From: Mycobacterium sp. 050128
GTDB lineage: Bacteria; Actinomycetota; Actinomycetes; Mycobacteriales; Mycobacteriaceae
DNA: 64,000 nt
Assembly (NCBI RefSeq): GCF_036409155.1
Contig: NZ_JAZGLW010000001.1
Span: 2,170,001-2,234,000, forward strand
Direction of reading: 5' to 3'
Shown: one piece after another, positions 31,354 through 45,813 of the stretch
Layout: every line of letters starts with the position of its first letter
How positions within the stretch are numbered: the first letter of the stretch is position 1
Translations under genes and position numbers: made by a program
The notes under the pieces: generated by a model
Database searches by the model: none
What the model was told of the DNA's origin: nothing
The model's input: only the letters and a program-made list of their open reading frames with translations

Positions 31354-31818
31354 GTGAAACGTGAGATCGTGATCGGCGCGGCCGGCGTCGCCATGGTGGT
31401 CGCAAGCTGTGTCGGCTGTTCGAGCAACAAGTCCAACACCGGCGCATCGGGCACGGCGGCAGCACCGGCCGGCCCCCAGGTCATCGTGGACGGCCAGAAG
31501 CAGAACGTCTCTGGCCAGGTCACGTGCACGCCGGCCGGCGACAACATCAACATCGGCATCGGTGACGCTTCCGCCGGCGTGGGCGCGGTCATCAGCAACG
31601 CCAACCCGCCCATCGTCCATGCGGTCGGGTTGGGCAACGTCAACGGCATCGCGTTCGGCTATTCCGATGCCGCGCCGAACCAGGCCAGCAATGCCGGGGC
31701 CGCGGTGGACGGCAAGTACTACGCGATCAAGGGCACTGCAACCGGTACCGATATGACCAATCCGGAACAGCCGCAGACGCTAACCAAGCCTTTTGAGATG
31801 GACGTGACCTGCCCGTAG
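31354..31818 (+). CDS. LpqH-family (19-kDa antigen-like) lipoprotein
   Basis: A 154-residue lipoprotein. The signal peptide MKREIVIGAAGVAMVVASCV ends in a lipobox with the modified Cys in VGCSSNKSN. The mature part matches the 19-kDa antigen pattern: VIVDGQKQNVSGQVTC near the start, GLGNVNGIAFGYSDA in the middle and a final cysteine in FEMDVTCP that probably pairs with the first. GTG start. It may be the local LpqH or a paralogue; without a search I leave the symbol blank. LpqH proteins are surface-exposed TLR2 ligands. Confidence 0.8.
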   Translation: MKREIVIGAAGVAMVVASCVGCSSNKSNTGASGTAAAPAGPQVIVDGQKQNVSGQVTCTPAGDNINIGIGDASAGVGAVISNANPPIVHAVGLGNVNGIAFGYSDAAPNQASNAGAAVDGKYYAIKGTATGTDMTNPEQPQTLTKPFEMDVTCP

Positions 31819-31871: not shown

Positions 31872-32807
31872 ATGTCGAAAAAGCGTGTCAGCGCGGTGGC
31901 GCTCGCGGCGGGACTCAGCATCTCCGCATTGAACCCGGGATTCGCGAGTGCCTTCCCACTCGACCCACCGCCGTGCCCGAATGGCAGCTGCCAGGGTGGG
32001 CCCGGCGGACCCGGCGGACCGCGTAGCCCGCAGGCGCCGGAAACCACCGCCCCGCCGGCTACCACCGCGGCGCCCGCGACCACTGCCGCGCCCGCGACTA
32101 CGGCTGCTCCGCAGACCACCGCTGCGCCGCAGACCACTGCCGCGCCGCAGACCACTGAGCAGCCGAGTCCGCAGACCACCGCGCCGCAAACCACCCCGAG
32201 CACGACCGCACCGGCCACGCAGACCACGAGCCCGCCGGCCAGCCAAACGACCACGCCGGCCCAACAGACCACGACTGCGCCGACCAGCCAAACCACGACG
32301 CCCGCCGAACAGACCACTACGGCGCCGAGCGCTCAAACCACGACGCCGGCGGGCAGCCAAACCACCTCGCCGTCCGGACAGCGACCCACTCGGACCGTGG
32401 TGGCCCCGAGCACCCAACCGCCGCACGAGCCGTATCAGCCGCGCGGCACCTACCTGACGGCCTCCGCCGAGATCGGCGGACCGATGGACTCATCTGTCGG
32501 CTTCAGCGTCGTCGGCCATGGGGCACCGCCGCCACCGCCGCCGCGGGGCTGGGGCTGGAACGACGGCCCGCCTCCGGGTCACCCGCCACCACACTGGTAC
32601 GGCCCGCCGCCTGCGGGTGGCTGGGACGGCCCACCGCCTCCTGGTGGCTGGAACCGTCCGTGGGTCGGGCCGCCGCGTGATGTGGTGTATGCGCGCAGCA
32701 ACTTCTCGCCGTTTGCCTACAACACCTTTACCGTCGTACCGGTCTTCAACTGGCAGTTCGGCGGTTGGGGTTACTGGTTCTTCGGTGTGTGGGTCCCGCT
32801 TTACTAA
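31872..32807 (+). CDS. secreted Thr/Pro-rich mucin-like protein
   Basis: A 311-residue protein. The signal peptide MSKKRVSAVALAAGLSISAL has a likely cleavage after GFASA. Residues 58-165 are Thr/Pro/Ala/Gln repeats (AAPQTTAAPQTT), a substrate pattern for mycobacterial O-mannosylation. Residues 215-265 are Pro/Gly/Trp-rich (PPPPGGWNRPW). The C-terminus NWQFGGWGYWFFGVWVPLY is very aromatic and looks like an envelope-binding end. GAGGGG precedes the ATG. It is probably a surface glycoprotein. A 7-bp stem spans its stop codon and could weakly terminate. Confidence 0.75.
   Translation: MSKKRVSAVALAAGLSISALNPGFASAFPLDPPPCPNGSCQGGPGGPGGPRSPQAPETTAPPATTAAPATTAAPATTAAPQTTAAPQTTAAPQTTEQPSPQTTAPQTTPSTTAPATQTTSPPASQTTTPAQQTTTAPTSQTTTPAEQTTTAPSAQTTTPAGSQTTSPSGQRPTRTVVAPSTQPPHEPYQPRGTYLTASAEIGGPMDSSVGFSVVGHGAPPPPPPRGWGWNDGPPPGHPPPHWYGPPPAGGWDGPPPPGGWNRPWVGPPRDVVYARSNFSPFAYNTFTVVPVFNWQFGGWGYWFFGVWVPLY
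32043..32366 (+). repeat. Thr/Pro-coding tandem repeats
   Basis: Low-complexity, in-frame units of roughly 15-18 bp encode AAPQTT, AAPATT and QTTTPA blocks. Three nearly identical 18-bp copies (AAPQTT) lie together at about 32106-32159. Such arrays vary in length between strains. Confidence 0.8.
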
Positions 32808-35393: not shown

Positions 35394-36875
35394 TTATGGC
35401 GCGACGACGCGTAGCGGCAGCAGGAGCCGAAACCGTGCCCCTCCGTCGTTGGACAGGCAGGTCAGCTCGCCGTGGTGAGCACGCGCCAGTGCGCGCGCGA
35501 TGGGCAGGCCGAGCCCGGCGCCACCGTGGTCCCGGTTGCGCGAAGAGTCAAGTCGGACAAGGCGGTCGAAGATTCGTTCGCGGTCAGCGTCCGGGATTCC
35601 CGGTCCCGAGTCGGTGACCGTCAGCTCGGCACAGCGCAATCCCGAATGATTGGCCTCGCGCACATCGAGCACGATGTGGCCGCCGGCCGGGGTGTGCCGG
35701 CGGGCGTTGTCGACGAGATTCGACACGATCTGGGTGACTCGGGTGCGGTCGGCGTGAATGGGCGCGATGGGGTCACCGGTACGGCTCACGGTGAGATCGG
35801 GGGAGAGCACGGCCGCTCGTTCACGTTCGGCTTCGGCGATTGCGACGAGGTCGGTGTCGGCGAGCTCCAGGATCAGGCCGGCGTCGATGCGACTCAGGTC
35901 GAGCATGTCGGCGACCAGCCGACCGGCCCGCCGGGATTCGGTGAGTAATAGTGTCGCGCGGCGGTATTGGCTGTTGGCTGGCGCGTCGTCTTCCTCTTGC
36001 ACGGTGGCCCCCAAGATCTGCTCGGCGGTGGCCCGGATACCGGTGATCGGAGTGCGCAGTTCATGGGCCGCATCGGCCAAGAACTGGCGGGTGCGCTGTT
36101 CGGAAGCTTCCAACGCGTCCAGCATGCCGTCGAAAGCTGCTGCGGCTCGGCCTAATTCGGTGTTCGCACGGTCTGGCAACAGTCGCCGCCCGCGATCGCC
36201 GGTAGTGATGGATCGGGCGAGGGTGGTGAGCCGGTCCAGCGGCCGCAGGGCGGTGCGGGTGACGACGATCAGCAAGATACCGGCCACCACAAGAGTGATC
36301 ACGCCGCCGGCGATCATCACTTCACGCAAGCGCCGAATCAGCGCGGTGGTTTGGGTGGTGTCCGCTACCAGGATCACTCGCCCGCCCGACGCCAACGGGT
36401 GCACCACGACCGTCGCTGTGGCGTCCGGCGGTGGTCCGGGCGGTGGGAAGGGGAAGACCGCGCCCGGATGCGGTGCAGGACCCCATCCGGGCGGCGGTGG
36501 TGGAAGTTGCCAGCCCGGTGGTGGCGGTGGCAGCGGAGGAGGGACAGTGGGCCCGTCGACCGTGTCGGGCGAGATGGTGGGGTCCCCGTAGCTGCTTCCG
36601 TCCGCGGCCACCAGCAAGACGCGGATCCCGCCGCCGCCGAGCTGCGCCACCAGCTGGTCGGGCGGGGTGTTGCCGGCGGCCAGCGCATCGGCGCGCGCAG
36701 CGGTGGCCATCAGCCGGTCATGCAGATCACGATGGGCCTGGATGCCCAGCAGCGCGTCAATCGTCACACCCAGCACCACCAGGAGCACCGTGAGCACGCC
36801 GAGGACAAGCACGGCAACCCGTCGGCGCAACGACGGGGTCGGGGTCCGCGATACCGGCGCGGAGTCGTCGTTCAT
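35394..36875 (-). CDS. sensor histidine kinase with a proline-rich extracytoplasmic loop
   Basis: A 493-residue sensor kinase. Membrane helices lie at about residues 19-43 and 187-206. The loop between them contains a Pro-rich stretch (about 102-150) with PPPPPPGWQLPPPPPGWGP. A HAMP segment follows, then the DHp box FLADAAHELRTPITGIRA with the phospho-accepting His, the N box SNLVDNARRHTP, and the G boxes VTDSGPGIPD and GAGLGLPIA. The open frame runs further upstream, but the ATG at 36875 overlaps the response-regulator stop by 4 bp and is the natural start. TrcS-like overall; no orthology claimed. Confidence 0.88.
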   Translation of the reverse strand: MNDDSAPVSRTPTPSLRRRVAVLVLGVLTVLLVVLGVTIDALLGIQAHRDLHDRLMATAARADALAAGNTPPDQLVAQLGGGGIRVLLVAADGSSYGDPTISPDTVDGPTVPPPLPPPPPGWQLPPPPPGWGPAPHPGAVFPFPPPGPPPDATATVVVHPLASGGRVILVADTTQTTALIRRLREVMIAGGVITLVVAGILLIVVTRTALRPLDRLTTLARSITTGDRGRRLLPDRANTELGRAAAAFDGMLDALEASEQRTRQFLADAAHELRTPITGIRATAEQILGATVQEEDDAPANSQYRRATLLLTESRRAGRLVADMLDLSRIDAGLILELADTDLVAIAEAERERAAVLSPDLTVSRTGDPIAPIHADRTRVTQIVSNLVDNARRHTPAGGHIVLDVREANHSGLRCAELTVTDSGPGIPDADRERIFDRLVRLDSSRNRDHGGAGLGLPIARALARAHHGELTCLSNDGGARFRLLLPLRVVAP

Positions 36876-37606
36876 GGCCGCGCTGGTTGCAGGCGATAAC
36901 CGATGCCGCGCACGGTATGCAGGATGCGCGGTCCGTGGGCTTCCAATTTCCGGCGCAACCCGCTGATGTGAACATGCACCAGGTTTGCGTCGTAAGCGTC
37001 GTAGCCCCACAGCGCGGTCAGGATCTGCCCGGTGCTGACGATGCGCCCCCGTTGCTCCACCAGGAAGCCAAGCAGCCGGAGTTCGGTGCCGGTGAGATCC
37101 ATCGCGGTTCCCGCACGCGTGGCCACCGCCGCGTCGAGGTCCAACGTCAGGTCGCCACACTGGACGACCGCCGGAAGGCGGCCCCGTCGGCGTAGCACGG
37201 CGCCCACCCGGGAGATCAACTCGGCCAGCTCGAAGGGTTTGACGACATAGTCGTCCGCGCCGCCGTCGAGACCGCGCAACCGGTCGGGCAGTCCGTCGCG
37301 CGCGGTGAGCAACACGATCCCGGCGTGGCCCCAATCGCGGATGACGTCGATCAACGTGAAGCCGTCGCGTCCCGGCATCATCACGTCCAGCACCACTAGG
37401 TCTGGCCGAAAGCCGTCGAGCACGTCCTCCAGCTCTGCGCCATCGGGCCGCATCGCGGTGAAATACCCGGCGTCGGTCAACGCCTCGCTGACCATTTCGC
37501 GGATTGCCTCCGAGTCCTCGACGACCAGTACTCGCGCCGCGGCGGTGCCGGAGCGGGGTCTACCAGCCGGCCGCGGCGCTCGACCGGAGTCGAAGCGATG
37601 GCTCAT
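36872..37606 (-). CDS. OmpR-family response regulator
   Basis: A 244-residue regulator. The receiver domain (about residues 25-140) has acidic pair VVEDSE, phospho-Asp in LVVLDVMMPGRDG, conserved Thr in LLTARD and Lys in VKPFE. A winged-helix DNA-binding domain (about 150-240) ends HTVRGIGYRLQP. The ATG at 37606 lies just after GAAGAG; the longer frame to 37708 has no better site. Its stop overlaps the kinase start by 4 bp, so the pair is translationally coupled. It faces divergently towards two proline-rich protein genes. Confidence 0.88.
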   Translation of the reverse strand: MSHRFDSGRAPRPAGRPRSGTAAARVLVVEDSEAIREMVSEALTDAGYFTAMRPDGAELEDVLDGFRPDLVVLDVMMPGRDGFTLIDVIRDWGHAGIVLLTARDGLPDRLRGLDGGADDYVVKPFELAELISRVGAVLRRRGRLPAVVQCGDLTLDLDAAVATRAGTAMDLTGTELRLLGFLVEQRGRIVSTGQILTALWGYDAYDANLVHVHISGLRRKLEAHGPRILHTVRGIGYRLQPARP

Positions 37607-37622
37607 CTCTTCATTCTCAACA

Positions 37623-37635
37623 GGTTTCTGAAACC
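37623..37635. promoter_or_regulatory. inverted repeat in two-component/proline-rich divergent promoter
   Basis: GGTTTCTGAAACC is a 6-bp inverted repeat with a 1-bp centre, 17 bp upstream of the response-regulator start. It is a candidate operator in the 130-bp divergent spacer. OmpR-type regulators usually prefer direct repeats, so another repressor is possible. Confidence 0.35.
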
Positions 37636-37736
37636 AACATGAAGAAATCACGCCTCGGGTCGATGTCTTCAGGTTCGGGCCAGATTCGCTTCCTAGCGTC
37701 GCCGGCATCGCAGCAGTTCACACATTTGGAGGACAC

Positions 37737-38228
37737 ATGGTTGACGAGCAACCACCACGGACCAGACCTGATGAGGCGAGCGGGGAATTCCAGCGGGCGC
37801 CGATCGCGGTCCCTGCCGATCAGTTGAGCCCGCCGGGTGGGCCGGCCTTCGTGCGGCGGCACCCCGTCGGCGTCGCGGTCGGAGTCGGCGCGACCGGGTT
37901 CATTTTCGGCGCGATACTGACGGCCCTGTTCCTGCCGATTCTCTTGGCGGGCCCGATGTCGCCAGGGCCGTTTCCCATGCCGGCGCCACCGCCGTGCGGC
38001 TTCGCGCCGGGCGGGTGCGGTGCTCCCATGCCACCGCCGCAAGGATGGGCCGGCCCGGCCGGTGGTTGGGGAGCGCCGGCCCCGCTGCCCAGACCGGCCC
38101 TCGCGCCGCCGCCGCCGGGGCAGCTGCCGCCACCACCCCCCGGAGCCTGGAATCCCGAACCATCGCCGGGTGCGCACCAACCGGCTCTTGGTGGGCCGCC
38201 GCCCCCGCCATCCGGCCAGGGCCGTTGA
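37737..38228 (+). CDS. membrane protein with proline-rich exterior tail
   Basis: A 163-residue protein. A short cytoplasmic N-terminus is followed by one membrane helix (about residues 45-71, GVAVGVGATGFIFGAILTAL) and a Pro/Gly/Ala-rich tail that contains PPPPGQLPPPPPGAWNPEPSPG split across residues about 122-145. That tail motif closely matches the sensor-kinase loop encoded next door. GGAGGA lies five bases before the ATG. It is divergent from the two-component genes and 107 bp before the second proline-rich gene. Function unknown; a target or co-sensor of the kinase is the best guess. Confidence 0.72.
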   Translation: MVDEQPPRTRPDEASGEFQRAPIAVPADQLSPPGGPAFVRRHPVGVAVGVGATGFIFGAILTALFLPILLAGPMSPGPFPMPAPPPCGFAPGGCGAPMPPPQGWAGPAGGWGAPAPLPRPALAPPPPGQLPPPPPGAWNPEPSPGAHQPALGGPPPPPSGQGR

Positions 38229-38335
38229 CGCCATGCGCACTTTGGCGGTCTCGTCTGCGGGCGCCGCCGGCACGACCGCCGCCACAGGGCGCGCATTGCG
38301 GGAATCAACCGACGAACAGATATGAGAGGTCGAGG

Positions 38336-38590
38336 ATGAAGATAAGGAACTTAATCGCTGGCTCGCTATTAGCGGGTGCTCTCGGTATCGCCGCGACGGG
38401 CATCGGTGGCGCGGTGGCCGGAGCGGATCCCTTCCCGCAACCGCCGGGCCCTGGTCAACCTGGACCGCCGCCGCCCGGGCCGGGTGGGCCATTCGGTCCC
38501 CCGGGGCCGGGTGGGCCGATTGGGGGTCCGCCTCCCGGCGCTCCGTTTGGACCGCCGCCGCCCGGAGCGCCGCGACCGCCGGGCATCTGA
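38336..38590 (+). CDS. small secreted Pro/Gly-rich protein, 84 residues
   Basis: The signal peptide MKIRNLIAGSLLAGALGIAA ends near AGADPFP; the mature part of about 54 residues is almost only Pro, Gly and Phe (GGPFGPPGPGGPIGGPPPGA). It is exported and unstructured. It lies downstream of the proline-rich membrane gene in the same direction, ahead of a strong hairpin. The longer frame upstream of 38336 lacks a ribosome site, whereas GAGG precedes this ATG. Confidence 0.68.
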   Translation: MKIRNLIAGSLLAGALGIAATGIGGAVAGADPFPQPPGPGQPGPPPPGPGGPFGPPGPGGPIGGPPPGAPFGPPPPGAPRPPGI

Positions 38591-38599
38591 TTACACGAC

Positions 38600-38630
38600 G
38601 GCCGCCTCGGTCGCCGGGATCGAGGCGGCC
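38600..38630 (+). terminator. strong hairpin terminator after the proline-rich genes
   Basis: GGCCGCCTCG (38600-38609) pairs perfectly with CGAGGCGGCC (38621-38630) around an 11-base loop. There is no U tract, as usual for mycobacteria. It closes the rightward proline-rich pair, 10 bp after the stop codon, and separates it from the convergent leftward group. Confidence 0.65.
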
Positions 38631-44358: not shown

Positions 44359-45813
44359 TTGGTGGCGAAGAAGACGGAAACGGCCACACAGGTTCGCCGG
44401 GGACTGCCCCTCCGGGTGGGCCTGGTCGCGGCAACCCTGGTCTTGGTGGCGTGCGGGCTGGCGGCCTCGGGTGTCATGGTCACGTCGATCCTGCGGCACA
44501 GTCTGGTCAGCCGGATCGACACCACGCTGCTCGAGGCCTCGCGGGGCTGGGCGCTGGCCCCGCGGCGGCAACTGACGGCGTCCTCCTACGAAGGCCCGGA
44601 CCCGGGCCGGCCCCCGTCGAAGTACTACGTGCGTGGCGTCGGCACCGACGGCAAACCGTTTACGGCCATCAATGACCGCAACGCCGAACCGGCCCTGCCG
44701 CCCGACAACGACGTGGGCCCCAATCCGACGACGCTGCCCTCGGTCAACGGCTCCGATATTCAGTGGCGAGCGGTATCGGTGCGCGGGCCCAACGGCCTGA
44801 CGACCGTCGCGATCGACCTGTCCGATGTCCAGCACACCGTGCGCTCCCTGGTGTGGCTGCAGTTCGGCATCGGGGTCGCGGTGCTGGTGGTGGTCGGCAT
44901 CGCCGGATTCGCGGTGGTGCACCGCAGCCTGCGCCCGCTGCTCGAGGTCGAACAAACCGCCGCCGCGATCGCCGCGGGCCAACTGGATCGCCGTGTCCCG
45001 GAACGTGATCCGCGCACCGAGGTGGGCCGACTTTCGTTGGCGCTCAACGGAATGCTCACCCAGATTCAGCAAGCGGTGGCTTCCTCCGAGTCCTCGGCCG
45101 AGACGGCACGCGGCTCGGAGGACCGGATGCGACGATTCATCACCGACGCCAGTCACGAACTACGGACCCCGCTCACCACGATTCGCGGATTCGCCGAACT
45201 GTATCGCCAGGGCGCGGCCCGCGACGTATCGATGTTGTTGTCGCGCATCGAAAGCGAAGCAAGCCGGATGGGCCTGCTGGTCGACGACCTGCTGCTGCTG
45301 GCGCGCCTGGACGTGCAGCGACCGCTGGAACACCATCGCGTCGACCTGCTGGCGCTGGCCAGTGACGCCGTGCACGATGTGCAGGCGATCGACCCGAAGC
45401 GCAAGGTGACGATGGAAATCCTCGACGGTCCCGGCACCCCGGAGGTGCTCGGTGACGAGCCCCGGATCCGCCAGGTGCTGAGCAACCTGGTGGCCAACGC
45501 GCTGCAGCACACCCCGACAAGTGCCGACGTCATTGTGCGGGTTGGAACCCACGGCGACGACGCCGTGATCGAGGTGGCCGATCGGGGGCCCGGCATGAGC
45601 CAGCAGGATGCGTCGCGGGTGTTCGAGCGGTTCTATCGCACCGACTCGTCGCGCGCGCGGGCCAGCGGCGGTACCGGCCTGGGGCTGTCCATCGTCGACT
45701 CGCTGGTCCACGCGCACGGAGGCAAGGTCACTGTCCAAACGGCGCCCGGTGAGGGATGTTGCTTCCGCGTCACCCTGCCGCGCGTCAGCGACGTACCGGC
45801 CCAGGTGGGCTAG
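44359..45813 (+). CDS. phoR: sensor histidine kinase PhoR
   Basis: A 484-residue sensor kinase, 32 bp behind phoP. Membrane helices lie at about residues 20-43 and 168-192, flanking a sensor domain of about 120 residues. HAMP follows, then the DHp box TDASHELRTPLTTIRGFAEL, the N box SNLVANALQHTP, and the ATP-lid motifs VADRGPGMS and GTGLGLSIV. It starts at TTG (44359) or the adjacent in-frame GTG (44362) after GGGGAAAG. It phosphorylates PhoP. Confidence 0.95.
   Translation: MVAKKTETATQVRRGLPLRVGLVAATLVLVACGLAASGVMVTSILRHSLVSRIDTTLLEASRGWALAPRRQLTASSYEGPDPGRPPSKYYVRGVGTDGKPFTAINDRNAEPALPPDNDVGPNPTTLPSVNGSDIQWRAVSVRGPNGLTTVAIDLSDVQHTVRSLVWLQFGIGVAVLVVVGIAGFAVVHRSLRPLLEVEQTAAAIAAGQLDRRVPERDPRTEVGRLSLALNGMLTQIQQAVASSESSAETARGSEDRMRRFITDASHELRTPLTTIRGFAELYRQGAARDVSMLLSRIESEASRMGLLVDDLLLLARLDVQRPLEHHRVDLLALASDAVHDVQAIDPKRKVTMEILDGPGTPEVLGDEPRIRQVLSNLVANALQHTPTSADVIVRVGTHGDDAVIEVADRGPGMSQQDASRVFERFYRTDSSRARASGGTGLGLSIVDSLVHAHGGKVTVQTAPGEGCCFRVTLPRVSDVPAQVG

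What the first reader, a model, noticed from the sequence alone, without database searches (positions are those of the whole stretch)
35394..38590. Two-component system and neighbouring proteins share a proline motif
The exterior loop of the histidine kinase contains PPPPPPGWQLPPPPPGWGP. The single-pass membrane protein encoded divergently 130 bp from the regulator contains PPPPGQLPPPPPGAWNP in its own exterior tail. A third gene encodes a secreted Pro/Gly-rich protein of 84 residues, and a strong hairpin closes the unit. Seen directly: motif match, layout, overlaps, terminator. Inference: the kinase loop and the tails bind the same partner (a cell-wall polymer or a WW/SH3-like protein), and the tail proteins are targets or co-sensors. 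I know no described mycobacterial system with this arrangement.
Basis: partly seen in the sequence, partly recalled or inferred. Interest (0 to 1): 0.8.

Follow-up and report, generated by a model that had tools for sequence, protein, structure and literature searches.

The report
Two-component switch for proline-rich surface proteins
A mycobacterial sensor-and-switch pair sits beside, and probably turns on, small proline-rich proteins that stick out of the cell, and the sensor itself carries a similar proline-rich loop; the pairing is kept in many related bacteria and resembles a system already known from tuberculosis research.

Summary
In detail: at 35394-38590 lie an OmpR-type kinase with a Pro-rich exterior loop, its regulator, and two divergent genes for predicted exported Pro-rich proteins. 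The letters shared by loop and tail are chance-level (P=0.21 when Pro runs are kept) and do not co-vary across species. The genetic link is not chance. Of 79 orthologous loci with enough upstream sequence, 53 carry a single-TM, Pro-rich-tail gene behind a conserved operator, an 11-bp direct repeat (CTTCAGGTTCG-CTTCARNTTCG). Operator sites also precede tail and secreted genes that have moved (14 of 40 sites away from the regulator; 8 of 20 fetched distal stretches). In the own genome the only site within 3 mismatches is in this spacer, and 0 of 15 other kinase loci have such a gene. Outside the genus, 12 of 14 fetched loci keep the layout. Best reading: an autoregulated two-component system whose targets are mainly exported Pro-rich proteins. 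It is a paralogue of TcrXY, published in M. tuberculosis as an acid sensor activating two small Pro-rich proteins; the likely TcrXY orthologue lies elsewhere in this genome. Shown: anatomy, conservation, operator. Inferred: binding, direction of control, signal. The loop's role is open.

The parts
35394..36875 (-). Sensor histidine kinase, 493 aa: TM1, small exterior sensor, TM2, HAMP, HisKA (His271), HATPase_c
   Evidence: AlphaFold2 model
36426..36581 (-). Pro-rich exterior loop of the kinase (residues 99-150, 26 Pro of 52), between sensor strands in the model; hypervariable in relatives
36872..37606 (-). OmpR-family response regulator, 244 aa (receiver + winged helix), overlaps the kinase start by 4 bp
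37623..37644 (-). Operator-like direct repeat facing the regulator gene (CTTCATGTTGGTTTCAGAAACC)
   Evidence: PWM score 15.0
37667..37699 (+). Operator facing the tail gene: CTTCAGGTTCG GGCCAGATTCG CTTCCTAGCGT, 11-bp steps; its first 22 bp are the only site in the own genome within 3 mismatches of CTTCAGGTTCGCTTCAGATTCG
   Evidence: PWM score 16.8
37694..37699 (+). TAGCGT, a possible -10 element (inferred from position and sequence only)
   Evidence: inference
37737..38228 (+). Tail protein, 163 aa: N-part, one glycine-rich TM (about 37866-37949), 91-residue Pro-rich exterior tail
38336..38590 (+). Small Pro/Gly-rich protein, 84 aa, signal-peptide-like start (MKIRNLIAGSLLAGALG...)
   Evidence: relatives
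38600..38630 (+). Hairpin after the third gene, 13-bp stem, no T-run; terminator role inferred

Best explanation
This is an autoregulated OmpR-type two-component system, a paralogue of TcrXY, whose main targets are exported proline-rich proteins. An envelope signal (unknown; acid or redox stress by analogy with TcrXY) reaches the kinase through a small exterior alpha/beta sensor from which a disordered Pro-rich loop projects. The phosphorylated regulator binds 11-bp direct repeats (CTTCAGGTTCG x2-3) in the divergent spacer, switches on the tail and secreted genes on one side, and feeds back on its own operon on the other. The tail proteins, one membrane helix plus a Pro-rich exterior tail, then line or span the envelope. 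Shown here: the anatomy, the conserved linkage, and the operator with its placement. Inferred: binding by this regulator, activation rather than repression, the signal, and the job of the proteins.
For: Domains. Of 79 unique orthologous loci with the regulator and at least 700 bp upstream, 53 have an operator and, behind a site, a TM/Pro-rich-tail gene; 8 more have an operator and a PPE gene (PPE confirmed by Pfam for the three of them tested). Operator hits of score 15 or more: 141 in 1.18 Mb, against a mean of 0.45 (max 3) for 60 column-permuted matrices and 4 for the reversed one. Site-to-start distance clusters at 18-19 bp (16 of 55) and 43-49 bp (24 of 55). Of 40 sites of score 15 or more away from the regulator's spacer, none used to build the matrix, 14 precede a Pro-rich exported gene (e.g. 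L040, L060, L061, L063, L070, L075, L103). Of 20 distal stretches fetched before looking at what lay downstream, 8 have a Pro-rich exported gene behind the site. Genomes with the operator pattern: 70 of 248, of which 63 also have the kinase at E<=1e-60, against 92 of 248 overall. Outside the genus: 12 of 14 fetched loci have an adjacent Pro-rich exported gene, 13 of 14 an operator-like site. The paralogous TcrX of M. tuberculosis binds promoters of, and activates, two small Pro-rich proteins (PMC10883919).
Against: No binding or expression data. The matrix was built from 26 of these spacers, so hits there are circular. 14 of 79 loci have an operator but no product of the sought kinds behind it near the regulator (8 of these have a tail-like gene elsewhere in the stretch), and 4 have neither. 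Of the 40 sites away from the spacer, 25 precede no recognised product and one a PE gene; 12 of 20 distal stretches show no Pro-rich product. Some sites precede other genes: PPE, PE, MIP (aquaporin family), MFS, a peroxiredoxin (Pfam). The window's own sites are degenerate (16.8 and 15.0, against up to 39.9 elsewhere); one site as strong (16.0) lies near another kinase of the genome (L222). Genome co-occurrence is not corrected for relatedness.
Confidence: 0.75

Rival explanations
1. Mimicry: the kinase loop and the tails bind, or are modified by, the same envelope partner (wall polymer, mannosyltransferase, protease, prolyl isomerase), so the kinase measures how much partner the Pro-rich proteins leave free and adjusts their supply.
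For: Loop and tails are both Pro-rich in 66 of 82 readable loci; 11 have a Pro-poor loop and no Pro-rich tail, in two clades. The model puts the loop as a low-confidence insert between sensor strands. Pro-rich C-terminal peptides of both M. tuberculosis analogues are listed with hexoses (PMC7287972, one table passage).
Against: No co-variation of loop and tail composition after removing relatedness (partial Mantel r=-0.108, P=0.92); the letter match is chance-level. Three loci have a Pro-poor loop with tails kept (L044 M. gastri, L045 M. persicum, L100 Pseudonocardiales), though another M. persicum entry has a long loop (P0055), so assembly collapse is possible. Only 3 independent contrasts exist, too few for a test.
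Confidence: 0.2
2. The tail protein is a membrane accessory regulator of the kinase (feedback brake or co-sensor acting through its TM helix), in addition to being a target.
For: Recurrent glycine-rich TM pattern (RRHPVGVAVGxGxxGLxxGA) in the tails; adjacent divergent gene kept outside the genus.
Against: No partner motif was sought in the kinase TMs; tail genes can be remote from the kinase (L175) or replaced by PPE genes.
Confidence: 0.25
3. The operator belongs to a different regulator, and neighbourhood with this pair is secondary.
For: No binding data; some sites precede unrelated genes; 7 of 70 operator genomes lack a kinase hit at E<=1e-60, although one of the 7 (G238, L191) has the regulator and a tail gene.
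Against: A site of score 11 or more faces the regulator gene in 33 of 79 loci, as for autoregulation; in the own genome the only near-consensus site is in this spacer; 14 of 15 other kinase loci have no site of score 12 or more and one (L222) has a single site.
Confidence: 0.1
4. No functional link: Pro-rich tracts are GC-driven low-complexity drift, and neighbours are kept by chance.
For: Loop letters are hypervariable, and loop length differs between entries named as one species.
Against: Position, operator, spacing and TM pattern recur, also outside the genus, while the tracts drift; operator sites are found with relocated genes.
Confidence: 0.05

Closest known systems
TcrXY of Mycobacterium tuberculosis with its targets Rv3706c (TarA) and Rv3705A (TarB); Stupar et al. 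2024, PMC10883919
   Same: Autoregulated pair whose regulon includes two small Pro-rich proteins; kinase relatives in M. basiliense and M. simulans are named 'TcrY' by their sources.
   Different: In this genome the kinase beside the best LpqH-family gene (the tcrXY-lpqH layout, recalled) is another one (C1:1758113-1759138, 39% identical to the window kinase over residues 156-489), with no Pro-rich loop of this kind (at most 9 Pro in 40 residues against 23) and no TM/Pro-rich-tail gene within its 7-kb stretch; the regulators are 41.5% identical. Target genes here sit in cis with a direct-repeat operator; the paper reports a 7-bp mirror repeat at tcrXY and no such motif at the Pro-rich targets.
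OmpR/PhoB-family two-component systems in general (PrrA, PhoP, MtrA are among the best solved relatives of the regulator)
   Same: Domains; direct-repeat operator layout; solved relatives.
   Different: Below the curated cut-off of each of the best 25 NCBIfam models listed for kinase and regulator; Pro-rich sensor insert and Pro-rich targets.
PE/PPE genes as alternative neighbours
   Same: In 7 loci of the Mycolicibacter clade and in L134 (G230) a PPE gene lies behind the operator; in L107 and L110 a PE gene lies in that place (Pfam for L058, L076, L134 and L107).
   Different: The window has a Pro-rich tail gene in this place.

Membership tests
OmpR-family two-component system | Kinase with HAMP, HisKA and HATPase_c over Pfam cut-offs | tested here: met
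OmpR-family two-component system | Regulator with receiver and Trans_reg_C domains, operon-like layout | tested here: met
   4-bp overlap
OmpR-family two-component system | Direct-repeat operator at 10-11 bp spacing near the regulated promoter | tested here: met
   by sequence only; binding not testable
TcrXY (orthologue) | Pair lies next to the LpqH-family gene | tested here: not met
   The kinase directly beside the best PF05481 gene is another locus; window kinase 39% and regulator 41.5% identical to that pair. The layout in M. tuberculosis is recalled and no M. tuberculosis sequence was at hand; another PF05481 gene does lie about 3.6 kb from the window kinase
TcrXY (orthologue) | Controls small Pro-rich exported proteins | tested here: inconclusive
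   Operator and linkage say yes; no expression data
TcrXY (orthologue) | Acid-responsive autoregulation | not testable with these tools
   needs experiment
TarA/TarB small Pro-rich proteins | Sequence homology of the tail or secreted protein to Rv3706c/Rv3705A | tested here: inconclusive
   Search with the M. gastri tail: 12 hits, none named M. tuberculosis; full Rv sequences not at hand; the window's own tail and secreted protein were not searched this way
TarA/TarB small Pro-rich proteins | Exported, Pro-rich C-terminal tail | tested here: inconclusive
   Export of the window proteins is predicted from hydropathy and composition only; TarA/TarB C-terminal peptides are listed with hexoses in PMC7287972

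The most novel reading that the evidence does not exclude
A sensor kinase carries in its ectodomain a sample of the very kind of disordered Pro-rich polymer that its regulon exports, and uses it as a probe for how that polymer is bound, modified or confined in the mycobacterial envelope: homeostatic control of a surface coat by mimicry, where bulk Pro-rich character and not a sequence motif is what is read.
Probability: 0.2. Interest if true: 0.8.

Novelty: new variant of a known kind. Interest (0 to 1): 0.6.

Why it matters
It gives a concrete operator motif and a simple cis module for control of exported Pro-rich proteins in mycobacteria and sister genera, where the published TcrXY work found regulation of such proteins but no target motif. 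It turns uncharacterised small Pro-rich genes into a predicted regulon, and makes the role of the kinase's Pro-rich loop testable by deletion.

Tried and rejected
Rejected: the exact loop/tail motif as evidence; letter-level co-evolution (taken one residue at a time, W correlates with Spearman 0.46, P=0.001, and A with 0.32, P=0.03, both without correction for relatedness or for the 7 residues tried); orthology with TcrXY; low-complexity chance as the whole story. Literature: searches found 0 papers, one paper on ECF sigma factors (listing only), two, ten, thirty-seven (8 listed), five; beyond PMC10883919 (abstract, passages, sections 6 and 12) and one passage of PMC7287972 I saw listings only. 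I claim no more about absence from print than these searches.

Rows dropped before counts: 2 duplicate loci (L135, L138) of 100; loci without the regulator (98 to 82) or with under 700 bp upstream (82 to 79); for the loop/tail table L139 and L140 too, and kinases whose loop could not be read (110 to 82; tail labels of the other-genus rows were set by hand; L107, L110, L131 and L134 are not among the 82). For the distal sites 20 stretches were fetched, covering 22 of 33 sites. The 14 loci outside the genus come from 26 genomes with a match, taken mostly where the match was full-length, with slightly laxer TM/Pro criteria and a site score of 12. The Pro count of other kinases read 0 in 7 of 15 loci because the kinase pattern was not found, so that comparison rests on 8.
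Full report
What is there. The window (G000:C1:2170001-2234000) holds at 35394-38590 an OmpR-type pair and two divergent genes. The kinase has Pfam HAMP, HisKA and HATPase_c; the regulator has a receiver and a Trans_reg_C domain; the two small proteins match no Pfam or NCBIfam family above cut-off. In the AlphaFold2 model (56-sequence alignment, mean pLDDT 79.6, pTM 0.44, so only local features are trusted) the exterior part is the end of a long helix, a short helix, strands 84-89, 95-97 and 108-110, a Pro-rich stretch without structure and in part of low confidence, strands 154-160 and 166-172, then the TM2 helix.

The loop. In 11 aligned orthologues the flanks of the loop are conserved (..RALLVTADGxTYGD.. 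and ..DATATVVVHPL..RVILVADTT..), while the loop varies in length and letters but stays Pro-rich. Over the named loci most loops are Pro-rich; in two clades, Mycolicibacter and the M. palauense/xanthum type, it is short and Pro-poor. Loop lengths differ between entries named M. avium, M. intracellulare, M. colombiense or M. kansasii, assembly effects not excluded. The 8-letter match to the tail is not more than expected once Pro runs are kept (P=0.21).

The neighbours are conserved. Kinase relatives at E<=1e-60 occur in 92 of 248 same-genus genomes. Of these, 53 have an operator (score 15 or more within 1.3 kb) and a TM/Pro-rich-tail gene behind a site; 8 have an operator and a PPE gene; 14 have an operator but no such product behind it near the regulator; 4 have neither (L078, L088, L110, L131). 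Among the 14, eight have a tail-like gene elsewhere in the stretch (L040, L042, L049, L063, L068, L070, L097, L103). In L040, L063, L070 and L103, and more weakly L097, it lies on the kinase's 3' side behind its own operator site. Tail TMs share a glycine-rich pattern, RRHPVGVAVGxGxxGLxxGA or near it. The third gene has clear relatives (MKIKQLIAGSLLAGALG...ADPPPPPP) beside the tail or at the kinase's 3' end. In the family search 33 of 251 genomes have a kinase at E<=1e-70, 26 of them outside the genus. Of 14 loci fetched from these 26, 12 have an adjacent Pro-rich exported gene (in L207 one of the secreted kind) and 13 an operator-like site of score 12 or more. Controls: 1 of 615 window ORFs fits the TM/Pro-rich-tail criteria, and 0 of 15 other kinase loci of the own genome has such an ORF.

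The operator. A matrix from 26 spacers with CTTCAGGTT..CTTCA gives 141 hits of score 15 or more in 1.18 Mb, against a mean of 0.45 and a maximum of 3 for 60 column-permuted matrices and 4 for the reversed one. Hits in the source spacers are circular; hits at relocated and distal genes are not. Sites lie 18-19 bp (16 of 55) or 43-49 bp (24 of 55) before the tail start; a site of score 11 or more faces the regulator in 33 of 79 loci. Of 40 sites away from the regulator's spacer, 14 precede a Pro-rich exported gene, one a PE gene, and 25 nothing that my criteria recognise. In the window the sites are 37667-37688 (16.8) and 37623-37644 (15.0); in the whole own genome only the first lies within 3 mismatches of CTTCAGGTTCGCTTCAGATTCG, though one site of score 16.0 by the matrix lies near another kinase (L222). 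Across 248 genomes the operator pattern occurs in 70, 63 of which have the kinase (Fisher P=4e-28, not corrected for relatedness; 2 hits for the backward pattern); 54 of 87 sites lie within 3 kb of the kinase on the same contig. Of the other 33 sites, 22 were covered by 20 fetched stretches. Eight stretches show a Pro-rich exported gene behind the site, including a remote tail copy (L175) and, in four, small secreted Pro/Gly-rich proteins with the site 18-19 bp before the start (L172, L179, L183, L189). Three of the 8 (L185, L186, L191) look like parts of main loci on split contigs. The other 12 show other or unclear products, among them MFS transporters and a peroxiredoxin.

Which known system. 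Sources name orthologues in M. basiliense and M. simulans 'TcrY'. But in this genome the best LpqH-family gene lies directly beside another kinase, which is the recalled tcrXY-lpqH layout; that pair is 39% (kinase, residues 156-489) and 41.5% (regulator) identical to the window's. The window system is therefore read as a paralogue. The M. tuberculosis TcrXY paper (abstract, passages, sections 6 and 12 read) reports an autoregulated acid-sensing pair whose regulator binds the promoters of, and activates, two small Pro-rich proteins, and no shared motif at those promoters. A glycoproteomics table lists hexoses on Pro-rich C-terminal peptides of both (one passage read). This is the nearest known biology and the reason for calling the find a variant of a known kind.

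How it works. Best supported: autoregulation plus control of exported Pro-rich proteins through the direct repeats. Not supported at letter level: one specific ligand shared by loop and tails (Mantel r=0.048, P=0.26; partial on regulator distance r=-0.108, P=0.92; n=48). Still open: a generic link, since loop and tail agree as Pro-rich or not in 77 of 82 loci, but only 3 independent contrasts exist, so it cannot be tested here.

Verdict. A real, conserved module with an operator not reported in the papers seen, and a probable regulon. Signal, binding and the loop's task remain to be shown by experiment.

Noticed in passing
window 31354-31818 (+): LpqH-family (PF05481) lipoprotein-like gene about 3.6 kb from the kinase, one of 8 PF05481 matches in the genome.
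   Followed up: partly
window 31872-32807 (+): Predicted secreted protein with Thr/Pro repeats and a stretch PPPPPPRGWGWNDGPPPGHPPPHWYGPPP resembling the kinase loop.
   Followed up: no
L036 5892-6025 (M. ahvazicum): Counterpart of window 36496-38138 is missing (about the first quarter of the kinase, the regulator, most of the tail gene), with 134 bp of other sequence in its place; both ends lie in Pro-rich tracts and the secreted gene is kept. Assembly error not excluded.
   Followed up: partly
L041, L080, L083, L087, L092, L093, L095, L096, L101, L102, L108, L109, L113: In 13 of 80 named loci the contig ends in or within about 100 bp of the readable kinase match, mostly just at the Pro-rich loop: the loop DNA seems to break short-read assemblies.
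   Followed up: no
L056, L058, L064, L069, L076, L077, L082, L134: A PPE gene sits behind the operator in place of the Pro-rich tail; in L107 and L110 a PE gene lies there, and in L037 and L097 an operator-like site precedes a PE gene (Pfam for L058, L076, L134, L107, L037).
   Followed up: partly
L172, L179, L183, L189: Small secreted Pro/Gly-rich proteins (MKTSLRLAATTLALTAGLG...QWCPGDFWDPGWG... and near forms) with the operator 18-19 bp before the start, far from the kinase.
   Followed up: partly
L187 about 1490-2205 (G179): Operator-pattern site 52 bp before a peroxiredoxin gene (AhpC-TSA) in a genome without a kinase hit at E<=1e-60; may be chance.
   Followed up: no
L065 4021, L079 2515, L173 1589: Operator-like site before a Lys/Ala-repeat gene with a weak, below cut-off DnaJ-domain match (L173 tested); target status unclear. 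L104 and L114: site before a MIP (aquaporin family) gene (Pfam for L104).
   Followed up: no
window 44791-45780 (+): A second sensor kinase about 8 kb away (37% identical), with at most 8 Pro in 40 residues before its HisKA domain.
   Followed up: no
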